From NCBI RefSeq assembly GCF_009497655.1, contig NZ_CP023317.1, positions 897,501-961,500 of the forward strand: a stretch of DNA of 64,000 nucleotides. The letters run 5' to 3'. Origin of the DNA: Priestia megaterium (GTDB taxonomy: Bacteria; Bacillota; Bacilli; Bacillales; Bacillaceae_H). This document shows positions 24,817-39,655 of this stretch, one piece after another. Below the pieces are notes generated by a model that searched no databases, had not been told where the DNA came from, and worked only from the letters and a program-made list of their open reading frames with translations. The position numbers and the translations under genes were made by a program. The stretch's first letter is position 1; each line of letters opens with the position of its first letter.

Positions 24817-26424
24817 ATGGATAAATATCAAATTGCATTATTAGCTAATGTGCGTAAGCAGCTGCAAGAGTGGACTGATCAAAATAAAGAAATACCTCAT
24901 GAAGAGGTGTACCGCTTTTTGCATTCAATTTCTGGAACGTCTGCGACTATTGGACTGCATTATTTAGGAGATCGTTCCCGCGCGTTAATGGAAGCTGTTG
25001 AAAAAAAACAGAAAAAAATCTGGGATTACGCGGAGTTGAATACTTTTTTATTAGATATTATTAAAATTTGTTATCAAGATGAAATTCAATCCGCAGAAGA
25101 TATAAATAAACCGATAGAAATCAGTGAACAAACAGCTAGCATTTTACTTGTGGACGACGATCTTTCAATGCTGATGTATTTAAAAGAACAGTTTGAAAAG
25201 CAGGGATGGTACGTATTAGCAACTGCATCTAAAGAAAAAGCTATTACGGCTTTTTACGAATTAAAGCCGGATTGTTTTGTTGTTGATGTACATATGAAAG
25301 ACTGTACAGGCTTTGACATTCTTTCATTTTTACGTGATAAAACAAAGCAACTGTTCGTCCCGATTGTCATGATGAGCGTTGATAATCAAAGAGAGACGCG
25401 TTTGAAGGCTTTTAAATTAGGGGCTGATGACTTCCTTGTTAAACCTTTCGATCTGGAAGAAAGTCTACTTCGAATTGGTCACCATATTGAACGAAAGCAA
25501 ATGTTTAACTCCTATTTAATGTTTGATGAATTAACAGGAGCCTATAACCGAACGTATTTAAAAGAAATCTATAGTCAGCAGCTGTCGAGCTACGACCGCT
25601 TAAAAGATCCTTTTTGTTTAGCGATTTTAGATTTAGATTTCTTTAAAAGAATAAATGATCAGTATGGACATCTTATGGGAGACCGCGTACTGCAAGCATT
25701 TGTAGAGTATATGAAGCATGAAATTCGTCCAACAGATCACATTTTTAGATATGGAGGCGAAGAATTTATTCTTTTACTGCCAAAAACCAATATAAAAGAG
25801 GCAGAAACAGTATTAAATAGACTGTTGGATTCCTTTGTGAAAAAAGTGTTCACACATCAAAGCAATTCGTTTTATTGCAGCTTTTCCGGCGGAGTTGTAG
25901 AAGTTCATAACAATGAATGGCCGTTAGAAAAAGCGCTTCATCAAGCTGATGAAGCATTATATATAGCGAAGGAATCAGGACGTCAAAAAATTGTAGCTTC
26001 TTCTCAAAGCAAGCTGGTTAAAAAGCGAACGCTTCGTATGGCTATTATTGATGATGATTCTATCATTCGAACGATGCTGAAAGAGCTTTTAAGTAAGATT
26101 GATGTAGGAGATCGTTATGAAGTGAAAATAGAAGTGTTTAAAGACGGCATCGAGTTTTTTGAGTCCCAATGGATTCACTCTAGCGATCACTACTTTGTTA
26201 TTTTAGATGGAATGATGCCTAAGATGGATGGCTTAGAAGTGCTGCAAAAATTAAGGCAGCAGAAACGTCACGATCAGTACACGGTTATTATGCTTACATC
26301 ACGAAACAGCGAACAAGATATTCAAAGAGCATTAGAACTTGGGGCAGACGATTACATGACAAAGCCATTTAAGTTAATGGAGCTTGAAGCGCGCGTACGT
26401 CATTTAATGAAGAAGGTGAAATAA
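24817..26424 (+). CDS. Diguanylate cyclase with HPt, two receiver domains and GGDEF
   Basis: A 535-residue cytoplasmic signalling protein with an unusual order. It begins with an HPt-like domain (phospho-histidine candidate H36 in FLHSISGTSATIGL). Receiver 1 has D157 in CFVVDVHM and a DD pair in ILLVDDD. The GGDEF domain has an intact GGEEF at 313-317 and an inhibitory-site RPTD at 304-307, exactly five residues upstream. Receiver 2 has D464 in VILDGMMP. It should make cyclic di-GMP under phosphorelay control. The ATG at 24817 is chosen because AAAGGGTG precedes it. It is the first gene of a six-gene operon. Confidence 0.9.
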   Translation: MDKYQIALLANVRKQLQEWTDQNKEIPHEEVYRFLHSISGTSATIGLHYLGDRSRALMEAVEKKQKKIWDYAELNTFLLDIIKICYQDEIQSAEDINKPIEISEQTASILLVDDDLSMLMYLKEQFEKQGWYVLATASKEKAITAFYELKPDCFVVDVHMKDCTGFDILSFLRDKTKQLFVPIVMMSVDNQRETRLKAFKLGADDFLVKPFDLEESLLRIGHHIERKQMFNSYLMFDELTGAYNRTYLKEIYSQQLSSYDRLKDPFCLAILDLDFFKRINDQYGHLMGDRVLQAFVEYMKHEIRPTDHIFRYGGEEFILLLPKTNIKEAETVLNRLLDSFVKKVFTHQSNSFYCSFSGGVVEVHNNEWPLEKALHQADEALYIAKESGRQKIVASSQSKLVKKRTLRMAIIDDDSIIRTMLKELLSKIDVGDRYEVKIEVFKDGIEFFESQWIHSSDHYFVILDGMMPKMDGLEVLQKLRQQKRHDQYTVIMLTSRNSEQDIQRALELGADDYMTKPFKLMELEARVRHLMKKVK

Positions 26425-27474
26425 ATGGGGATGTCAATTCAAGTGGTATATATCTTATTTGGCGGATTGCTATTGCTGTTGGTTTGTTTTCTAAGTTATT
26501 TACTTATTCAAAAAGCGCGTTTAAACGCTTTCCGGGCAAAAGTAGAATCCTATAAAGATAGTATAAAAGAATCTCTTTTTATTTATTTATACAGAAAAGA
26601 TGAAGAACATCGGATAGAGCCTAAAAATAAAATAGAGCTGGCGGGTGTAGAGGAACTATTGAGCGGTTTTTCTGCAGCTGTGCAAGGTGATGACATTCGA
26701 AATAACATCACGCTCTATGCGGAGAAGGTTTTTACACCCAAATATAAAAAAGAGCTGCATCATTCTAGGTGGAGTGTCAGAATGAATGCCCTTTATGCTA
26801 TTGAAGATTTTGGTCTTACTACGCTAACAGACCAATTAGTAGAAATGTATGAGAAAAAAAATAGTACAGCGGCTGAAAAAAATCAAATTTTAAAGATTTT
26901 AGTTAAGCTAAACCGTCCTGAGTTTGTTATATACATGACGAATGCCTCTAAACCGCTGTCTGAATTTATGTACCGCTCTTTGTTTGGAACTATGAACAGT
27001 GAGCAGTTTCAGCAATTTATTAATAAATTTGAAGACCTGCAAGAAGAAATTCAGCTACCACTTATCGATATGGTCGGTATCAATCATAAGTTAGAGTATA
27101 TCGATTTCTTAAAAATGCACATGAAAAGTTCATCAGAAGAACTGCGAATTCGTTCGTTGAAATCACTTAACGCTTTATCTTTTCCATTAAAAGTAGAGGA
27201 GCTCACGAAACATCTTCAATCAGATATGTGGCAAGAGAGAATGATGGCTACCAAACTAGTAGGCAAAACGAGAGATGAGAAGGGATTGTCACTTCTCGAG
27301 CAGTCGCTGAAAGATTCTCATTTTCTTGTGCGCTCGAATGCTGCTCAGTCAATGATGAAAATCCCAACGGGTACAGAATACTTAGTTCATGTATATGAAA
27401 CGACTGATGACAAGTTTTCGAAAGATATGGCAGCAGAATGGCTTGAAAAGGGAGGAATTACGGTTGTGGAATAG
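26425..27474 (+). CDS. Membrane-anchored HEAT-repeat protein
   Basis: 349 residues. An N-terminal membrane segment (about 6-28, VVYILFGGLLLLLVCFLSYL) is followed by a cytoplasmic alpha-solenoid. HEAT-like repeats are recognisable in WSVRMNALYAIEDFG, LRIRSLKSLNAL and FLVRSNAAQSMMKI. It starts directly after the cyclase stop and overlaps the glycosyltransferase gene by 11 nt. It is probably a scaffold or regulator of the synthase; no enzymatic motif is visible. Confidence 0.8.
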   Translation: MGMSIQVVYILFGGLLLLLVCFLSYLLIQKARLNAFRAKVESYKDSIKESLFIYLYRKDEEHRIEPKNKIELAGVEELLSGFSAAVQGDDIRNNITLYAEKVFTPKYKKELHHSRWSVRMNALYAIEDFGLTTLTDQLVEMYEKKNSTAAEKNQILKILVKLNRPEFVIYMTNASKPLSEFMYRSLFGTMNSEQFQQFINKFEDLQEEIQLPLIDMVGINHKLEYIDFLKMHMKSSSEELRIRSLKSLNALSFPLKVEELTKHLQSDMWQERMMATKLVGKTRDEKGLSLLEQSLKDSHFLVRSNAAQSMMKIPTGTEYLVHVYETTDDKFSKDMAAEWLEKGGITVVE

Positions 27475-28873
27475 TGTTTGGCATCTTTTTTTGTCCGTTT
27501 GCGGATGGGCTGTATTTGCTTATATGATTTTTGTGCTTTGTTTTTATTTTATGATGTTTATCATTTCTGCTTTTCAACTGCGAAAGCAATATCAATTAAA
27601 TGATGAAGAACCTTATGAAGATTTGCTTGCGGTTAGCTATACAACGCCGTTATCTATATTAGTTCCCGCTTATAACGAATCTGTCGGGATTATTGGAAGC
27701 GTGCGTTCGCTGCTTGGAATTGAATATCCGGAATATGAAGTAATTGTAGTAAATGACGGATCTTCAGATGATACGTTAGAAAAGCTCATCGAAGAGTTTT
27801 CTCTTGTGAAAATGAATCGAGTTGTGAGAAAGCAAGTGGAGACGAAAGAAGTAAAAGCTGTATATCGTTCTAAATTATACGATTATTTATATGTAGTCGA
27901 TAAACAAAATGGAGGAAAGTCAGATGCATTAAATGCAGGAATTAATTTATCCAACTATCCTTATTTTTGTTCGATCGATGGTGATTCAGTGTTGGAAAGA
28001 GACGCTTTTTTAAAAGTTATGAAGCCAATTATTGATTCAGACGGAGAAGTAATTGCTTCAGGAGGAAGTATTCGAATTGCAAACGGATGTAAAATCGAAA
28101 ACGGTGCGGTCGTATCGATTGGACTTGATACGCAGCCGCTTGTTGTGATGCAGATTATTGAATATTTACGTGCCTTTCTTATGGGGCGCATTGGTCTCAG
28201 TCGCCATAATTTATTACTTATTGTGTCAGGAGCATTTGGCGTATTTTCTAAACGCTGGGTGATTGAAGCTGGGGGTTATTCTCATACAGTCGGCGAAGAC
28301 ATGGAGCTTGTTGTTCGCCTCCACCGACTGATTAAACAGAAAAAAGCCAACAATCAAATTGTTTATATTCCAGATCCTGTATGCTGGACAGAGGCACCTG
28401 ATGAAATCAAATATTTGCGAAGACAGCGAAACCGCTGGCACCGCGGTTTATTTGATAGTCTTTGGAAGCATAAAGAGATGCTGTTTAATCCGAAATACGG
28501 AAGTATCGGAATGATTTCTATGCCTTATTTTGTGTTTATTGAACTAATCGGGCCGGTCATGGAAATGTTAGGCTATTTGTTTATTGTTATTTCTCTAGTT
28601 GTAGGCGGGATTTATGTGGAATTTGCGTATTTGCTTTTTCTCTTAATGGTTGTATATGGTTCTCTTTATTCGATGGCGGCTGTTTTGCTAGAAGAGTGGA
28701 GCCTTCGCAAATATCCAAAAGTATCTGATATCGCTAAGCTGTTTGTCTTTTCCCTGACTGAATCCTTTTGGTATCGCCCTCTAACTGTTATATGGCGCTG
28801 TCATGGATTGTTGGACGTTATTCGCAATAAAAAGGGCTGGGGAGACATGCAGCGAAAAGGAGTTTCACAATGA
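27464..28873 (+). CDS. Processive membrane family-2 glycosyltransferase
   Basis: A 469-residue inverting synthase of the BcsA/PgaC/hyaluronan type. Motifs in order: VVNDGSSDD (D98), CSIDGDSVLE (D172, D174), GEDMELV (catalytic-base region D279) and QRNRW at 321-325, the QxxRW of processive enzymes. One membrane segment precedes the catalytic domain and three or four follow. The start is a TTG at 27464 with GGGAGG eight bases upstream; upstream ATGs in frame lie inside the HEAT gene. It polymerises a beta-linked polysaccharide across the membrane. No PilZ domain is present, so cyclic di-GMP must act through another protein. Confidence 0.9.
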   Translation: MWNSVWHLFLSVCGWAVFAYMIFVLCFYFMMFIISAFQLRKQYQLNDEEPYEDLLAVSYTTPLSILVPAYNESVGIIGSVRSLLGIEYPEYEVIVVNDGSSDDTLEKLIEEFSLVKMNRVVRKQVETKEVKAVYRSKLYDYLYVVDKQNGGKSDALNAGINLSNYPYFCSIDGDSVLERDAFLKVMKPIIDSDGEVIASGGSIRIANGCKIENGAVVSIGLDTQPLVVMQIIEYLRAFLMGRIGLSRHNLLLIVSGAFGVFSKRWVIEAGGYSHTVGEDMELVVRLHRLIKQKKANNQIVYIPDPVCWTEAPDEIKYLRRQRNRWHRGLFDSLWKHKEMLFNPKYGSIGMISMPYFVFIELIGPVMEMLGYLFIVISLVVGGIYVEFAYLLFLLMVVYGSLYSMAAVLLEEWSLRKYPKVSDIAKLFVFSLTESFWYRPLTVIWRCHGLLDVIRNKKGWGDMQRKGVSQ

Positions 28874-31800
28874 AAAAATGGTTATTAATCGGCGGCATTA
28901 TTTTGGTTATGGCAGTAACGGCTTCGCCATTTCTTATTTGGCAGCTAAAGAAACCAACTGATTTGAATATGCTTGTCATTGATAAAACAGTGCCAGATCA
29001 AACATTTCGAGAGCATCAGGGCTTAATGTGGATGCTGAATCAAGCGAAAGTACGCAAAGACGGGAAGCCTTATGAAATCTCAAAAGATTATGCAGGGTTT
29101 TATCCGAATGGAGATAAAACATACAGCATTAAATCTCTGCCAAAAACAAACTCTGCAGATATGATTTATATCACGGACACGTATGGCGTATACAAAGAAG
29201 ATTTAGGCGTAAAAGCTAAAAGAGGAGATCGTTCTCAGCTGGTGTATGGCGGCATGACTTCTGAAGATGTGAGCTACGTTAAGAAAGCACTGAATGGACG
29301 TACAAAAACGCTGATTGGAGAGTTTAATACATTTGGAAGTCCTACTTCTCTAGACGTTCGCAAAGAACTGTATGAATTGTACAATGTTACGTGGTCCGGC
29401 TGGATTGGTCGCTATTTTGATGAATTCGGCAGTGAAGAAGTTCCTGCTTGGGTGAAAAGTGCTTACAAAAAGCAGTACAACAAAGAGTGGAACCTTACGG
29501 GCAAAGGCTTACTGTTTGTTAATGAATCCAATAAGCTCGTTATTATAACGGAAAAAGAATTAAAAGAAAATCCAGTATGGTTTCAATATACAAAACAAGG
29601 AAAAAAAACATTGAATTTACAGGATGAATCTGCTTATCAATATTGGTTTGACGTAATTACACCCCAGCAAAAAAGTGATGTGCAGGCTCAGTTTGTCTTT
29701 CACTTGGATTCTGAAGGAAAAAACAAGCTAAAGGAAAATGGTATTCCTTTGTCCATACCAGCAGTCGTTCATCATAATAAAGAGCGATATGATACTTATT
29801 ACTTTGCAGGAGATTTTGCAGATCAAGGAGAAGTACCTTCCATTTATCAAACCTCTTTTTACCCGGTGTGGAAGAAATGGACAGAGAAAATCGGAAAAGA
29901 AGATGAGTCTTCTTTTTACTGGACTGTTTATCTGCCTCTTATGAATAAGATTATAGATCAACAGCAAAATGCATCGCAGCCTGCTTCTGTTACTTTTAAT
30001 GAAAATATGGAAATCTATGAAGATGCTGACCGTAAAGTAGCAGGGAAAGTAGGAAAAGATTATTTGCAAGTTTATCAAAACGGCAAGTGGAAAGATTTGC
30101 TGATTAAAGGAGTAAATATGGGCATTAGTAAGCCAGGCCATTTCCCTGGTGAGACCGCTATTTCGAAAGAAGAATATTTACGCTGGTTTAAAGAAATTGG
30201 CAAGATGAATGCAAACTCAATCCGCGTATACACTATTCACCCTCCCGGCTTTTATGAAGCGCTTGCTGAGTATAACCAAAAAGCCAAAGAACCCATTTAT
30301 CTTTTTCATGGAGTATGGGTGAATGAAGAAGTTTTCTATGATTCACAAGATGCTTTTGCAAAGGAAAATACAAAAGAATTTGAAGCTGAAATGAAAAGGA
30401 TTGTAAACGTTATTCATGGAAATGCAACACTGCCAAAACGGACGGGACATGCAAGCGGAACGTATACAGCAGACGTGTCTCCTTATGTTTTAGGCTGGAT
30501 TATAGGAGTTGAATGGGATCCCACGGTAGCCCTTTCGACAAATGAAAAACATAAAGGAATGAAAGATTTTAAAGGGAAGTACATCTATACGGAAAAAGGC
30601 AATCCCTTTGAAATTTGGCTTGCGCAGCTTATGGAAAAAACAATTTCCTATGAGCAGGATAAATATGATTGGCAGCGGCCTATGAGCTTTACGAACTGGG
30701 TGACGACGGATTTATTGACTCATCCATATGAGCCTTCTGAAGACGAAGATAAAGTGTCTGTTAATCCTAATTTAATTCACACAACTAAAAAATTTGAGCC
30801 GGGATTATTTGCTTCTTATCATATTTATCCTTACTATCCTGATTTCTTAAACTATGAACCTCGTTATCTCGCTTATCGCGATCATCGAGGAGAGAAAAAT
30901 AACTACGCAGGTTATTTGCAAAATATGAAAGAAGTTCATCATATGCCCGTGCTTGTTGCTGAATTTGGCATTCCGGCTTCGCGAGGACTCACCCATAGAA
31001 ACGTATACGGATGGGATCAAGGCTTTCATACGGAACAAGAACAAGGAAAGATTCTGTCACGCTTGTACGAAGATATTGTTGAAGAAAAAATGGCTGGCGG
31101 TATGGTCTTTACATGGCAAGATGAATGGTTTAAGCGAACGTGGAATACGATGGAGTACGACAATCCGAACCGCAGGCCATTTTGGACGAATTTGCAAACG
31201 GGAGAACAGCATTTTGGCCTGTTGAGTTTTGATCCAGGAACAAAGCTGAAAGTCAAAGTAGACGGCAAATCAGATGATTGGGAAAAGCTGAACAGCAAGT
31301 CGGTATATAAGCCGTCTAAGAAGTTAAAAGCATTGAACATTACAAGTGATGAAGGTTATCTATATCTACACGTGAGTGCAAAAGAGCTGGAAGATCAAAA
31401 GCTTTATTTCTTGTTTAACACAATTAACAATCAGGGACAGTCAAAGATTCCTCAAATTCCTTCTTTAAAAACAAAAGGAATTGATTTTGTAACAGAATTA
31501 AACGGGAAAGAAGACAGTCACTTGTGGATAGACAGCTATTACGATACGTATTATTTTTCGTATGCCCATCAGCTTCAAATGATTCCATCTGTAAAAGGAA
31601 CCGATACAAAAGATAACGGCATGTTTAATCCAATCAGGCTCGCCCTTAACAAAGAGTTAGCGATTGGAGAGGGGAAAAACAAGAGAACCATTCCTTTTGA
31701 CGCCTATGAAACTGGGAAGCTCCAAGAAGGAAACAGCGATCCTAACTCTTCTTCATTTGATTCGCTGGCAGATTTTAAAGTGAATGAATCAAATGGAATT

Positions 31801-32118
31801 GCTGAACTTCGCATTCCTTGGGCGCTTTTAAATGTAAAAGACCCGAGTCAAAAAGAAATAATGGGAGATATTTGGTCCAAAAAAGGATTAGAATCCAGCG
31901 AGAAAATGAAAGGAATTCAAGTGGGAGTCGTAGCTGTTAATAAGAAGAGCAATGACGTGGAAGATACGTTTCCGACTCAGAAAAAAGGAGAACTTTTATT
32001 AAAAGATTTTTACTTATACAAGTGGAAAAATTGGGAGTATCCAACTTTTCACGAACGAATAAAGCCGTCCTACTTCATATTGCAAAAAACGTATGGACGA
32101 CTACAAGCGGAGGAATAA
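28870..32118 (+). CDS. Large membrane-anchored glycosidase-like protein
   Basis: 1082 residues, starting four bases inside the glycosyltransferase gene. A signal anchor covers residues 5-24. An N-terminal domain of about 360 residues is unlike anything I know. A probable (beta/alpha)8 clan-A glycosidase domain follows at about 390-760, with WIIGVEWDP (E548) and VLVAEFGIPASRG (E698) as candidate acid/base and nucleophile. A C-terminal beta-rich, carbohydrate-binding-like module spans about 790-1070 (WEKLNSKSVYKP, YLYLHVSAKEL). It lies outside the membrane and may trim, cross-link or export the polymer. Catalysis is inferred from motif shape only. Confidence 0.7.
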   Translation: MKKWLLIGGIILVMAVTASPFLIWQLKKPTDLNMLVIDKTVPDQTFREHQGLMWMLNQAKVRKDGKPYEISKDYAGFYPNGDKTYSIKSLPKTNSADMIYITDTYGVYKEDLGVKAKRGDRSQLVYGGMTSEDVSYVKKALNGRTKTLIGEFNTFGSPTSLDVRKELYELYNVTWSGWIGRYFDEFGSEEVPAWVKSAYKKQYNKEWNLTGKGLLFVNESNKLVIITEKELKENPVWFQYTKQGKKTLNLQDESAYQYWFDVITPQQKSDVQAQFVFHLDSEGKNKLKENGIPLSIPAVVHHNKERYDTYYFAGDFADQGEVPSIYQTSFYPVWKKWTEKIGKEDESSFYWTVYLPLMNKIIDQQQNASQPASVTFNENMEIYEDADRKVAGKVGKDYLQVYQNGKWKDLLIKGVNMGISKPGHFPGETAISKEEYLRWFKEIGKMNANSIRVYTIHPPGFYEALAEYNQKAKEPIYLFHGVWVNEEVFYDSQDAFAKENTKEFEAEMKRIVNVIHGNATLPKRTGHASGTYTADVSPYVLGWIIGVEWDPTVALSTNEKHKGMKDFKGKYIYTEKGNPFEIWLAQLMEKTISYEQDKYDWQRPMSFTNWVTTDLLTHPYEPSEDEDKVSVNPNLIHTTKKFEPGLFASYHIYPYYPDFLNYEPRYLAYRDHRGEKNNYAGYLQNMKEVHHMPVLVAEFGIPASRGLTHRNVYGWDQGFHTEQEQGKILSRLYEDIVEEKMAGGMVFTWQDEWFKRTWNTMEYDNPNRRPFWTNLQTGEQHFGLLSFDPGTKLKVKVDGKSDDWEKLNSKSVYKPSKKLKALNITSDEGYLYLHVSAKELEDQKLYFLFNTINNQGQSKIPQIPSLKTKGIDFVTELNGKEDSHLWIDSYYDTYYFSYAHQLQMIPSVKGTDTKDNGMFNPIRLALNKELAIGEGKNKRTIPFDAYETGKLQEGNSDPNSSSFDSLADFKVNESNGIAELRIPWALLNVKDPSQKEIMGDIWSKKGLESSEKMKGIQVGVVAVNKKSNDVEDTFPTQKKGELLLKDFYLYKWKNWEYPTFHERIKPSYFILQKTYGRLQAEE

Positions 32119-32120
32119 CA

Positions 32121-32489
32121 ATGGCAAAAATTTTATTAGCGGAAGATGAAGAAGTGCTTCGTATGTTAGTGGTAGATACGCTTGAAGATGAAGGACATGA
32201 AGTGACGGAAGCAGAAAACGGCGAAGAAGCGTTGGAATTTATTAAAGAACGTGATTTTGACTTAATTATTTTGGATTATATGATGCCCGTGTTCACCGGG
32301 CTTGAAGTCATTCAGCAGCTGAAAGAAATGAAAGATAAGCGCCATACAAAAGTATTGATGCTTTCAGCTAAGAATCAATCTGCTGATCAAAGCCGGGTGT
32401 TAGAAGCAGGGGCTGCGTATTTTATGTCTAAACCGTTTAGTCCCCTATTGCTAGCCGAACGTGTTGAGGAAATTTTAGATGAACAATAA
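32121..32489 (+). CDS. Single-domain (CheY-like) response regulator
   Basis: A 122-residue receiver domain and nothing else. The acidic pair is in LLAEDEEVLRML, the phospho-acceptor D52 in LIILDYMMPVFTG, the conserved Ser in VLMLSAKN and the Lys in FMSKPF. GGAGG lies seven bases before the ATG. With no output domain it probably shuttles phosphate between the hybrid kinase encoded just downstream and the HPt domain of the cyclase, as Spo0F does. Confidence 0.92.
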   Translation: MAKILLAEDEEVLRMLVVDTLEDEGHEVTEAENGEEALEFIKERDFDLIILDYMMPVFTGLEVIQQLKEMKDKRHTKVLMLSAKNQSADQSRVLEAGAAYFMSKPFSPLLLAERVEEILDEQ

Positions 32490-35355
32490 ACTAAAACGAA
32501 AAAGTATCTCAACCCAGTTCATCTTCTTAGCAAGTATCCTTTTACTTGCTTTTGCGGCGGGTTCAACTGTACTTGTTGTACGGCAAAAAGAAATTACAGC
32601 TGATTATGCCCAGTACAGGGCACAAGTACGGGAAAAGGCACAGCTGCTATCTACAATTGATAAATCAATGAACAGAGCTTTTTTGCAGGCTCGTGGGTTT
32701 ATTGCATTTGATTCAGAGGATATGTATAACGAGGCTGCAAGTCAGCAAAAAAGTATCGAAGAAAATCTTGATCGACTTTCAGGTCTAGCGGCAGATAGAC
32801 GTGAACGTACGTTTGTAAATGAAGCGACGGTGATGCTAAACACGTATTTTAATCAAACGCTTCCTTATTTTAAAGATATTTACGACAAAAAAGGCATTGA
32901 AGGAGTCCGCTCTAGTCCTGAGCGGAAGGCTGCTTCTAAATCAATAGAACAAATGCAAAAAGAACTTGATGACTACCAAAATGAATTAACTAAAGACTTA
33001 AATACACAGTACGATGACACGTCGAGTGACATGCAGAAAAGTCAAACGTTCTTTATTTTATTTTTAGCGTTTACAGTGGTCATTTTATTATTGCTTACAC
33101 GGGTATTGCTAAATAAGTTTGTAAAGCCGCTGAGTCAGCTAGCATATACGGCAAGCGAAATTGCTGCGGGAAAAGAAATGCCTATGACATTTGATGAACA
33201 TAGAAGAGATGAAATCGGTATGCTATCTCAGGCCTTTTACAAAATGGTATCGACTTTGCAAAATAACGAACAGGAGTTAACGGCTCAAAATGAAGAGCTG
33301 ATTGCACAGCAAGATGAGTTGCACAGTCAGCAAGATGAACTTCAGCACGCATTGGAATTGACAAAGGAACGAGAAGGCGAGTTAGAATTGCGCAATTTAT
33401 TTGTGCATGGACTAACAAATTCTCTTCAAAAGCAAGAAGTTCTCACGAGTGCTGTCACAAACATGAGCCGAGTAATGAAAGCTGATCACGGTTTTATTAT
33501 GCTAACCGATGAAAAGACACATGCTTCATTTGGTCTATCTTCATCAAGTGTTCAACAGATGATGAAAAACCTTCATAATAATTACATTGATCATGTGCAA
33601 AAGACGAAAAAATGTATGGTAGTAAAAAGAGAGTGTATAGAACATGAGCGCCTATATCATCGGCAAACGTTTTATTTGTATGATGTTATCGTACCGGTGC
33701 TGTCTTCACAGGGAGATATGCTAGCCTATATGTTTTACAGCCGCTACGCGGATGAATACACAGAACATGAATTACAGACATTTGAAATATTGGCCAAACA
33801 AATTACGATTGCTCTTGAAAAAATTTATATTTACGAAGAGTCTGAGCATGACAGACTGCTATCTCAAGATATTTTAAATTCGATTCAAGAAGGAATGCAG
33901 CTTGTAGATACAAGCGGTACGATTCTACAAGTGAATACGAAGACTAGCGAATTGTTTCAATATGAGCATCAAAGCGGGCTTCTTCAGCTTTCTCGCGATC
34001 AATGGCTAGATGCTCTCTCTCAAAAAGTCGAAAATATAGAGGAGCTAAGACAATACGTTAAAGCCATTTGTAAGGGAGAGCAAGTAGAAAAGTCTTTTGT
34101 TTATTATCTGCACACGGAAGGTAAGCGAAAAGTTATAAAAGTTTATAGCGAATACGTATATCGAAACCGTCAGATGTTTGGCGTATTGTTCGTTCATCGT
34201 GATATTACGAAAGAATTTGAAGTTGATCAGATGAAGTCGGAATTTGTAAGCACTGTGAGTCACGAGCTGCGCACACCTTTAGCAAGTGTATTAGGGTTCA
34301 CTGAGCTTATGCTAAACAAAACATTAAAAGAAGAAAGACAGAAGAAGTATTTAACTACTATTTATCAGGAAGCACAGCGGTTAACTTCTTTAATCAACGA
34401 TTTTTTGGATGTCCAAAGAATGGAAGCGGGGAAACAAACCTACGATAAAAAGTATCAAGACATTCTGCCGCTTATTAAGCAGGTGATTGAGGTCCAGAAC
34501 ATACAAACAAGTAAGCATGAATTTGATATGATTTCCGATCAAGAGCATTTTACAGTAATGGGAGATAAAGATAAGCTTCTGCAATTGTTTAATAACGTAA
34601 TTAGCAATGCAGTAAAATATTCGCCCGATGGAGGGAACGTTACAGTTAAAGTGTATCAAAAGGAACACGCTGTTTATATTGATATTCAAGATGAAGGAAT
34701 TGGTATACCAAGTGAAGCGCTAGGACATTTGTTTACCAAATTCTACAGAGTAGATAACTCCGATATGCGCAAAATTGGCGGAACGGGTCTAGGGTTAGCA
34801 ATTGTAAAAGAAATTGTAAAAGCTCATGGTGGAGACATTACTGTACAATCAGAATGGAAAAAAGGAACAACATTCACGGTTGTTCTCCCGCTTCTACATG
34901 AAGTTCAGTACGATGAAGAAATGATGATAAGTGCGAATGATAACCGTAAAAGCGTAGTGATTGTAGAAGATGATAAAAGTTTAGCGACGCTTTTACAGGT
35001 AGAATTAAAAGAAAGCGGCTTTCACGTTCGGTATTTTAATAACGGAGAAGACGCATTAAACTCTATTCATCAGCAAAAGCCTGAAGTGGTTGTTCTAGAT
35101 ATCATGCTAGGAGAAAATAAGTTAGACGGCTGGGATGTTTTAAGGCATCTCAAAGAAAATACAGAGACAGAAAAAATTCCTATCTTAATCTCATCTGCTT
35201 TAGACGAAAGAAGCAAAGGATTAGAGCTTGGAGTGTGTGAGTTTCTGATTAAGCCCTATCAGCCTAGTAAACTATCTAAAACGATTCTCCAGCTGCTTTT
35301 GAAAAAACAAGAGCATGAAGGAGAAATTATGATTCCATCAGATAAAGAAGAGTAG
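32479..35355 (+). CDS. Hybrid sensor histidine kinase with C-terminal receiver
   Basis: 958 residues. Two membrane segments (about 12-33 and 192-212) enclose an extracellular helical sensor of the CHASE3/four-helix type. Then follow HAMP, a striking Gln/Glu coiled coil (ELIAQQDELHSQQDELQHAL), a GAF domain, a PAS domain, HisKA with phospho-histidine H595 in VSHELRTPL, and an ATPase domain with DEGIGIPSEAL and GGTGLGLAIVKEI. The C-terminal receiver has D874 in VVVLDIMLG. The gene overlaps the response-regulator gene by 11 nt. With the HPt and receivers nearby it completes a His-Asp-His-Asp relay. Confidence 0.92.
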   Translation: MNNKLKRKSISTQFIFLASILLLAFAAGSTVLVVRQKEITADYAQYRAQVREKAQLLSTIDKSMNRAFLQARGFIAFDSEDMYNEAASQQKSIEENLDRLSGLAADRRERTFVNEATVMLNTYFNQTLPYFKDIYDKKGIEGVRSSPERKAASKSIEQMQKELDDYQNELTKDLNTQYDDTSSDMQKSQTFFILFLAFTVVILLLLTRVLLNKFVKPLSQLAYTASEIAAGKEMPMTFDEHRRDEIGMLSQAFYKMVSTLQNNEQELTAQNEELIAQQDELHSQQDELQHALELTKEREGELELRNLFVHGLTNSLQKQEVLTSAVTNMSRVMKADHGFIMLTDEKTHASFGLSSSSVQQMMKNLHNNYIDHVQKTKKCMVVKRECIEHERLYHRQTFYLYDVIVPVLSSQGDMLAYMFYSRYADEYTEHELQTFEILAKQITIALEKIYIYEESEHDRLLSQDILNSIQEGMQLVDTSGTILQVNTKTSELFQYEHQSGLLQLSRDQWLDALSQKVENIEELRQYVKAICKGEQVEKSFVYYLHTEGKRKVIKVYSEYVYRNRQMFGVLFVHRDITKEFEVDQMKSEFVSTVSHELRTPLASVLGFTELMLNKTLKEERQKKYLTTIYQEAQRLTSLINDFLDVQRMEAGKQTYDKKYQDILPLIKQVIEVQNIQTSKHEFDMISDQEHFTVMGDKDKLLQLFNNVISNAVKYSPDGGNVTVKVYQKEHAVYIDIQDEGIGIPSEALGHLFTKFYRVDNSDMRKIGGTGLGLAIVKEIVKAHGGDITVQSEWKKGTTFTVVLPLLHEVQYDEEMMISANDNRKSVVIVEDDKSLATLLQVELKESGFHVRYFNNGEDALNSIHQQKPEVVVLDIMLGENKLDGWDVLRHLKENTETEKIPILISSALDERSKGLELGVCEFLIKPYQPSKLSKTILQLLLKKQEHEGEIMIPSDKEE

Positions 35356-35503: not shown

Positions 35504-35532
35504 CCTCCTTACATGCGTAAGGAGGCTTTTTT
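35504..35532 (+). terminator. Strong rho-independent terminator
   Basis: Perfect 9-bp stem CCTCCTTAC/GTAAGGAGG, 4-nt loop, then CTTTTTT. It lies 149 nt after the kinase gene. It would end the phosphorelay operon and/or a short transcript beginning near 35465. Confidence 0.85.
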
Positions 35533-39475: not shown

Positions 39476-39655
39476 CTTCTTATCAAGAGAGGCGGAGGGA
39501 TAGGCCCTGTGAAACCTCGGCAACGGACTTTATAGAACCGTGCCAACTCCCACAAGCAGTGCTTGAAAGATGAGAAGAGACCAGGCTTACTAACAATTGT
39601 GATCCCAACCTCTTCTTACAGGCACTTAGACACTGGAAGTGGAGGTTTTAATTTT
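39476..39655 (+). ncRNA. SAM-I (S-box) riboswitch with terminator, no downstream gene
   Basis: The aptamer spans 39476-39577. P1 is CTTCTTATC/GATGAGAAG. Conserved elements in order are AGAGAGGCGGAGGGA, GTGAAACCTCGGCAAC, GTGCCAA and TTGAAAGATGAG. The expression platform has a terminator (AACCTC at 39607-39612 with GAGGTT at 39642-39647, then T-rich sequence). A competing antiterminator pairs CTCTTCTT with the 3' side of P1. SAM binding should end transcription near 39655. Read-through meets only a four-codon ORF (39656) and then the bidirectional terminator at 39681-39712; all following genes face the other way. It is either a trans-acting RNA or the remnant of a lost sulphur-metabolism gene. 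Confidence 0.92.

What the first reader, a model, noticed from the sequence alone, without database searches (positions are those of the whole stretch)
24817..35355. Self-contained phosphorelay and cyclic di-GMP operon around a polysaccharide synthase
Six same-strand genes, most overlapping or within 3 nt, encode a diguanylate cyclase, a membrane HEAT-repeat protein, a processive GT2 with QxxRW, a 1082-residue anchored glycosidase-like protein, a lone receiver and a hybrid histidine kinase. All four phosphotransfer element types of a His-Asp-His-Asp relay are encoded here: kinase H595, kinase receiver D874, the lone D52 and the cyclase HPt H36 with its own receivers. I know no described Bacillus exopolysaccharide locus (eps, ydaJKLMN, pgs) with this composition. 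I infer that an external signal sets local cyclic di-GMP and polymer output.
Basis: partly seen in the sequence, partly recalled or inferred. Interest (0 to 1): 0.85.

Follow-up and report, generated by a model that had tools for sequence, protein, structure and literature searches.

The report
Receiver-controlled HEAT-partnered polysaccharide synthase operon
Six neighbouring genes of a Priestia megaterium-like bacterium look like a switchable machine for making a surface sugar polymer, and its core pair, a sugar-chain synthase with a HEAT-repeat partner, turns up next to two-component signalling genes in very different bacteria and in archaea.

Summary
In detail: six overlapping or touching same-strand genes encode an HPt-REC-GGEEF-REC diguanylate cyclase, a membrane HEAT protein, a processive GT2, a 1082-residue anchored glycosidase-like protein, a lone receiver and a hybrid kinase. 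All named residues check out. Of 80 fetched relatives, 29 carry all six genes, 24 in this order. Comparison changes the interpretation. The constant core is HEAT-GT2: 29 of 30 fetched Bacillota loci of this GT2 family have HEAT within about 1.5 kb on the same strand; the 30th is a HEAT-GT2 fusion with a weak score. All 11 cross-phylum loci viewed, archaea included, have HEAT, and 7 have a receiver close by. Kinase, HPt and cyclase motif are replaceable inputs that tend to be lost together. In Bacillales the cyclase's C-terminal receiver usually stays. It survives alone in some Neobacillus; one clade of 23 lost its phospho-Asp and GGDEF, 22 keeping the RxxD site. I infer a synthase gated through HEAT by a receiver fed by phosphate or c-di-GMP. 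The only published relative found is C. perfringens NELoc-2, without assigned polymer function. No biochemistry exists. Novelty: new variant of synthase-dependent exopolysaccharide systems.

The parts
24817..26424 (+). HPt-REC-GGEEF-REC diguanylate cyclase, 535 aa
   Evidence: GGEEF 313, I-site RPTD 304
24817..25101 (+). HPt domain of the cyclase (residues 1-95), H36
   Evidence: Pfam Hpt in 28 of 31 homologues; H36 in 30 of 31
26041..26400 (+). C-terminal receiver of the cyclase (RECb), D464; the part kept when GGDEF is lost
   Evidence: D464 in 32 of 32 full-length, 4 of 4 middle-length, 6 of 6 receiver-only; Asn in 23 of 26 degenerate regulators
26425..27474 (+). HEAT-repeat protein with one N-terminal membrane helix, 349 aa
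   Evidence: Pfam HEAT_2 60.1 bits, cut-off 27.7; hydrophobic 1-33
27464..28873 (+). processive GT2 synthase; start probably TTG 27464 (469 aa), listed ATG 27389 (494 aa)
28870..32118 (+). 1082-aa membrane-anchored protein: N-domain, TIM barrel, C-terminal beta domain
28948..29979 (+). N-domain (GHn) of the 1082-aa protein, residues 27-370; a separate gene in some relatives
   Evidence: L136, L137, L139; fold not determined
30010..31254 (+). clan GH-A-like barrel (GHt), E548 and E698 invariant in 68 rows
31255..32115 (+). C-terminal beta-rich domain (GHc)
   Evidence: found with GHt in the loci
32121..32489 (+). lone receiver, D52
   Evidence: Pfam Response_reg 101.8 bits
32479..35355 (+). hybrid histidine kinase: two hydrophobic regions, HAMP, GAF, PAS, HisKA H595, HATPase, REC D874
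35504..35525 (+). terminator-like hairpin after the operon
   Evidence: consensus scan only

Best explanation
A membrane polysaccharide synthase (GT2) works as a unit with a membrane-tethered cytoplasmic HEAT solenoid. The HEAT protein receives a receiver-domain signal and gates polymerisation; the extracytoplasmic 1082-aa protein trims, transfers or anchors the emerging chain. In this bacterium the signal comes from the hybrid kinase, whose phosphate passes via its receiver, the cyclase HPt and the lone receiver to the cyclase receivers, which sets cyclase activity and the state of the C-terminal receiver (RECb). RECb, with c-di-GMP at the I-site as second input, acts on HEAT-GT2. Shown by sequence: the parts, the HEAT-GT2 linkage, HEAT-GT2 and barrel-HEAT gene fusions, persistence of RECb in most Bacillales loci. 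Inferred: gating by RECb through HEAT, the order and direction of phosphate flow, the polymer's identity (an amino sugar is possible), trimming by the barrel.
For: HEAT on the same strand within the fetched 1.5-kb flank of GT2 in 29 of 30 Bacillota loci (19 of 20 not used to build the HEAT model; the miss is a 1004-aa fusion at 18 bits). Same pairing at 34.9-43.8% GT2 identity in archaea, Alphaproteobacteria, Bacteroidota and Deinococcota. Receiver within three genes upstream of HEAT in 7 of 11 cross-phylum loci viewed. HEAT-GT2 single frames in 4 of 82 genomes of one class, the query's own included, one cut by its contig end; barrel-HEAT fusion L131 and HEAT-GT2-GHn fusion L123, with membrane sides that agree (inferred). 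A clade at 99* holds 11 of 13 RECb rows, all 5 receiver-only or double-receiver rows and all 6 degenerate rows put in. Degenerate regulators: GGDEF lost 26 of 26, RxxD kept 22 of 26. E548 and E698 invariant in 68. GlmS and a nucleotidyltransferase follow GT2 in Halosolutus.
Against: A receiver is not obligatory: none near HEAT in 4 of 11 cross-phylum loci viewed; 15 of 30 Bacillota GT2 loci show one in the fetched stretch, 12 of them on the HEAT side; 7 of the 75 loci with the core have no adjacent regulator, one of them at a contig end. Loss of RECb's Asp is one event on the tree. Two of 13 RECb rows (L058, L062) fall outside the RECb clade. No interface was modelled; no experiment exists. 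GlmS is seen in one locus only.
Confidence: 0.5

Rival explanations
1. One reading: the relay exists to set local c-di-GMP, and c-di-GMP is the only signal to the synthase; HEAT or an unlinked receptor reads it.
For: Intact GGEEF and I-site; kinase, HPt and GGDEF are all present in 28 and all absent in 36 of 68 loci; a degenerate-GGDEF c-di-GMP receptor is shown for Pel in B. cereus (passages).
Against: GGDEF absent or broken in 39 of 68 regulators, with 7 changes on the tree; receiver-only regulators in 6 loci, of which L049 may be a split longer gene; in the 7 cross-phylum loci with a receiver no GGDEF gene was annotated or found by our model in the 6-8 kb flanks. No PilZ or MshEN domain on this GT2.
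Confidence: 0.3
2. HEAT is only an assembly scaffold or stability factor for GT2, and the receivers act elsewhere, for example on motility or transcription.
For: HEAT sequences diverge strongly (mean column identity 20%) while GT2 is conserved (49%); half of the 30 Bacillota GT2 loci show no receiver in the fetched stretch.
Against: Receiver immediately upstream of and overlapping HEAT in two haloarchaea; RECb persists after loss of the rest of the regulator.
Confidence: 0.3
3. The GT2 decorates proteins, lipids or wall polymers rather than making a free exopolysaccharide.
For: The named families it matches are all far below their cut-offs.
Against: Processive motifs, BcsA and hyaluronan synthase among the PDB matches, TPR and/or YaiO partners in diderms.
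Confidence: 0.15

Closest known systems
C. perfringens NELoc-2 (PMC2879425 passages with table 4; PMC11677781 passages)
   Same: 685-aa hypothetical protein, HEAT 377 aa and GT2 466 aa adjacent, with VTC-domain, 'tubulin/FtsZ' and CotH genes. A Planococcus plasmid has a like-sized set in which the 689-aa protein matches our GHt model and the neighbours are annotated polyphosphate polymerase, DUF4956 and CotH
   Different: No receiver, cyclase or kinase listed; authors mention a chitin synthase of unclear relevance and possible plasmid maintenance. C. perfringens sequences were not compared here; the match is by annotation, size and order
NfrBA-YbcH of E. coli (PMC8669469, abstract and passages)
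   Same: GT2 synthase under a local cyclase; TPR outer-membrane partner like several diderm loci here
   Different: c-di-GMP read by an MshEN domain in the GT2; no HEAT or receiver in the passages seen
Gram-positive Pel (PMC7112168, passages)
   Same: Degenerate GGDEF with RxxD site as receptor, as in 22 degenerate regulators here; CotH and DUF4956 accessory genes
   Different: pelDEADAFG biosynthetic genes; sequences not compared here
PleD-type cyclases
   Same: Receivers plus GGEEF with I-site
   Different: Extra N-terminal HPt and C-terminal receiver; below the PleD family cut-off
B. subtilis ydaJKLMN (titles and abstract starts in a search listing; composition recalled)
   Same: GT2 EPS operon with a GGDEF-type protein (recalled)
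   Different: No HEAT, receiver or kinase (recalled, not aligned here)

Membership tests
PNAG synthase PgaC/IcaA | TIGR03937 score at or above 422.3 bits | tested here: not met
   112.2 bits
Cellulose synthase BcsA | TIGR03030 score at or above 699.1 bits and a PilZ domain | tested here: not met
   34.4 bits; no PilZ match
XrtG-associated GT (TIGR03111) | score at or above 363.95 bits | tested here: not met
   93.6 bits
NfrB | MshEN domain on the GT2 | tested here: not met
   not among Pfam matches up to E 1
PleD (NF007135) | score at or above 474 bits | tested here: not met
   254 bits
HPt domain | Pfam Hpt match with phospho-His | tested here: met
   28 of 31 members at E up to 0.01; H36 in 30 of 31; window sequence alone below cut-off
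Diguanylate cyclase | GG(D/E)EF and GGDEF family score | tested here: met
   137.5 bits, cut-off 23.8; GGEEF 313
HEAT repeat protein | Pfam HEAT above cut-off | tested here: met
   60.1 vs 27.7 bits
GH157 | same fold and catalytic residues | tested here: inconclusive
Gram-positive Pel | pel biosynthetic genes | not tested
   no Pel sequence was compared
ydaJKLMN | homology of each gene to the B. subtilis operon | not tested
   no B. subtilis sequence was compared

The most novel reading that the evidence does not exclude
HEAT-GT2 is an undescribed class of synthase-dependent polysaccharide system shared by Bacteria and Archaea, in which a receiver domain docks on a HEAT solenoid to gate the synthase directly, and in which the docking receiver can be rewired from phosphate to c-di-GMP sensing by losing its Asp and keeping a GGDEF I-site.
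Probability: 0.35. Interest if true: 0.88.

Novelty: new variant of a known kind. Interest (0 to 1): 0.72.

Why it matters
Known exopolysaccharide synthases read c-di-GMP through PilZ, MshEN, PelD-type or PgaCD sites (partly recalled). A synthase gated by a receiver through a HEAT adaptor would be a different control logic, present in archaea too, and would give a function to REC-HEAT-GT2 operons that carry only generic annotation. The minimal three-gene haloarchaeal form and the natural fusions make it directly testable.

Tried and rejected
Rejected: that the six-gene set is the unit; it is one version of a smaller core. Rejected: PNAG, cellulose, XrtG and NfrB membership. Rejected: a PilZ or MshEN domain on the GT2. 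The idea that phospho-Asp and I-site replace each other rests on one evolutionary event, so the counts are not independent evidence. Kinase-HPt-GGDEF co-loss is not significant after kinship correction (median p 0.125). A receiver tree could not place the cross-phylum receivers (32 of 65 inner branches open). Rfam at gathering threshold found nothing in the operon. Paper searches that showed no description of a HEAT-GT2-receiver system: 20 of 112 listed; 0 papers; 20 of 67 listed; 0 papers. They were seen as listings; passages were read of seven papers (38 and 43; 99; 101; 103; 104; 105). Anoxybacillus flavithermus genome paper: the 12 of 18 places shown did not mention this locus. The GHn fold is unknown: its prediction was interrupted and then unavailable. 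Fold lists were filled by the barrel, so the other domains of the 1082-aa protein are barely tested; Foldseek's whole-length TM-scores are low (0.24 for the top hit).

Limits of counts: L001-L080 are the best 80 of 505 matching stretches, so they favour near relatives; L001 is nearly the window. 'Kinase present' means within the fetched DNA (up to 10 kb each side). L026 was added to the six-gene count although its kinase lacks a GAF hit, L018 although its HPt is a separate frame. Of the five loci without HEAT-GT2, L080's contig ends about 0.3 kb after the 1082-aa gene. L047's regulator frame is short (217 aa) and lacks the I-site stretch; why was not examined. In one search, 30 of the 33 places were fetched and examined; in L193 the HEAT hit is weak (30 bits) and not directly adjacent. 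GT2 controls outside the family: 3 of 3 without an annotated HEAT gene within 3 kb, a small sample from the lower rows. The HEAT and GT2 models were built with most of the cross-phylum rows in them; independent support there is the record annotation and Pfam for Emticicia (25.0 bits, just below cut-off); Paenibacillus L146 rests on our model alone. Only part of the regulators went into the receiver tree.

Full report
What is there. The window lies at 897501-961500 of contig 1 of a 5.24-Mb genome; the nearest named record found is Priestia aryabhattai (97% protein identity), hence 'Priestia megaterium-like' (inference). Six + strand genes run from 24817 to 35355 with gaps of at most 2 nt or overlaps. 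One correction: the GT2 more likely starts at TTG 27464, which has GGGAGG in front and gives 469 aa, close to many relatives' lengths, rather than at ATG 27389.

How conserved is the six-gene set? Of the best 80 of 505 matching stretches, 75 hold HEAT, GT2 and the 1082-aa protein within the fetched DNA, and 29 hold all six genes, 24 of them in the order of the window (L026 and L018 included as explained under Tried and rejected). Five show the 1082-aa protein without HEAT-GT2. Within the genus, 6 of 9 other genomes have the 1082-aa protein. The host genome has one strong member of the GT2 family (759 bits, next 94) and 10 GGDEF matches.

What varies. A regulator with a receiver could be assigned in 68 of the 80. 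Kinase, HPt histidine and GGDEF motif are all present in 28, all absent in 36, mixed in 4. The labels need 6 (kinase), 7 (GGDEF) and 7 (HPt) changes on a GT2 tree. In five independent pairs on starred branches the cyclase motif goes with the kinase in 3-4 and never opposite, median p 0.125. They tend to be lost together, but kinship leaves this short of significance. L010, L012 and L037 keep full length with a broken motif and no local kinase; L016 keeps the motif without one; L004 has GGEEI with one.

What stays. The C-terminal receiver usually persists. In six loci the regulator is little more than this receiver (140-154 aa); one of these, L049, has further GGDEF-type frames just upstream and may be a split longer gene. 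L021 has two receivers and no GGDEF. In a receiver tree, 11 of 13 RECb rows, the 5 receiver-only or double-receiver rows and the 6 degenerate rows that were put in form one group at 99*; RECb of L058 and L062 falls outside. D464 is kept in 32 of 32 full-length, 4 of 4 middle-length and 6 of 6 receiver-only regulators. In 26 degenerate ones GGDEF is gone in all, the Asp is Asn in 23, and an RxxD site remains in 22; the three with Asp kept lack it, and the one Asn row without it, L047, has a shortened frame. This looks like exchange of phosphate input for c-di-GMP input, but the 23 Asn rows are one clade, that is, one event.

Beyond Bacillales. Of 398 Bacillota genomes, 25 have the 1082-aa protein or a part of it (E up to 1e-3) and 31 have the GT2 family (E up to 1e-80). 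In 30 fetched GT2 loci, HEAT lies on the same strand within the fetched 1.5 kb in 29, and in 19 of 20 that did not help build the model; the last is a fusion with a weak HEAT score. A receiver is seen in 15 of the 30, on the HEAT side in 12; a GGDEF match in 5. In Clostridia the N-domain and the barrel are often separate genes. Natural fusions join the parts: HEAT-GT2-N-domain (L123), barrel-HEAT (L131), and HEAT-GT2 frames in 4 of 82 genomes of one class, the query's own included.

Across phyla. tblastn of the GT2 against plasmid records gave 13 records at 34.9-43.8% identity covering at least 83% of the query; the next rows listed are at 25.7-29.2% (25 of 274 records listed). The Erythrobacter GT2 as query recovers the same 13; the Salinirubellus GT2 recovers 12 of them, misses Devosia and adds a Legionella record with a HEAT gene under the match. 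I viewed 11 loci (one of the three M. ciceri records). HEAT is annotated or detected in all 11; Emticicia's is just below Pfam's cut-off and Paenibacillus's rests on our own model. A receiver stands within three genes upstream of HEAT in 7 (Halosolutus, Mesorhizobium, Emticicia, Erythrobacter, Salinirubellus, Haloarcula, Devosia) and was not found there in 4 (Deinococcus, Planococcus, Bacteroides, Paenibacillus). In Salinirubellus and Haloarcula the unit is receiver-HEAT-GT2 with overlapping or nearly touching genes. Mesorhizobium and Devosia also have an Hpt gene next to GT2 on the other strand. In five diderm loci the partner is a TPR and/or YaiO barrel protein (Mesorhizobium, Emticicia, Erythrobacter, Devosia, Bacteroides), in Deinococcus a TPR-barrel(GHt) fusion. 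Three GT2s outside the family had no annotated HEAT within 3 kb.

Mechanism. I read this as a synthase whose HEAT partner receives a receiver-borne signal. In the window the kinase, HPt, cyclase and lone receiver are an elaborate input stage. The direct receiver-HEAT contact is inferred from persistence and adjacency; no interface was computed. c-di-GMP may act at the I-site of the cyclase itself, as it does at PelD for Pel in B. cereus (passages). The product is unknown; GlmS and a nucleotidyltransferase behind the Halosolutus GT2 hint at an amino sugar in that organism only.

Known or not. The searches listed in Tried and rejected showed no paper describing HEAT-GT2 as a system; two of the lists were capped. 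C. perfringens NELoc-2, found by comparative genomics, lists a 685-aa hypothetical protein, HEAT and GT2 among its eleven genes with no polymer function assigned; I take it for the same core from annotation, size and order, without a sequence comparison. The library is open-access only, so a description elsewhere is possible.

Noticed in passing
window 39477-39576 (+): SAM riboswitch with a hairpin and T-run seen by eye behind it and no + strand ORF of 100 aa or more starting before 41595; perhaps a solitary S-box.
   Followed up: partly
own genome C1:3601012-3604803: A GGDEF match and a 445-aa GT2 frame about 2 kb apart: a second candidate c-di-GMP exopolysaccharide locus in the same genome.
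   Followed up: no
L052:13341-22801 (similar frame sizes in L054, L064, L079): A second polysaccharide cluster beside the HEAT-GT2 locus: UDP-glucose dehydrogenase family gene, deacetylase, PilZ-GT2, deacetylase-like, GH18; domains were searched in L052 only.
   Followed up: partly
L060: Record titled Arthrobacter nests among Bacillaceae in the GT2 tree: contamination or transfer.
   Followed up: no
L149:5998-7434: Devosia GT2 of this family is annotated as two pieces.
   Followed up: no
L144, L135: Barrel-HEAT-GT2 with CotH, DUF4956 and polyphosphate-polymerase-like genes on a Planococcus plasmid (annotated), and genes of similar size and order beside the same core in a clostridial genome (not annotated), like NELoc-2.
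   Followed up: partly
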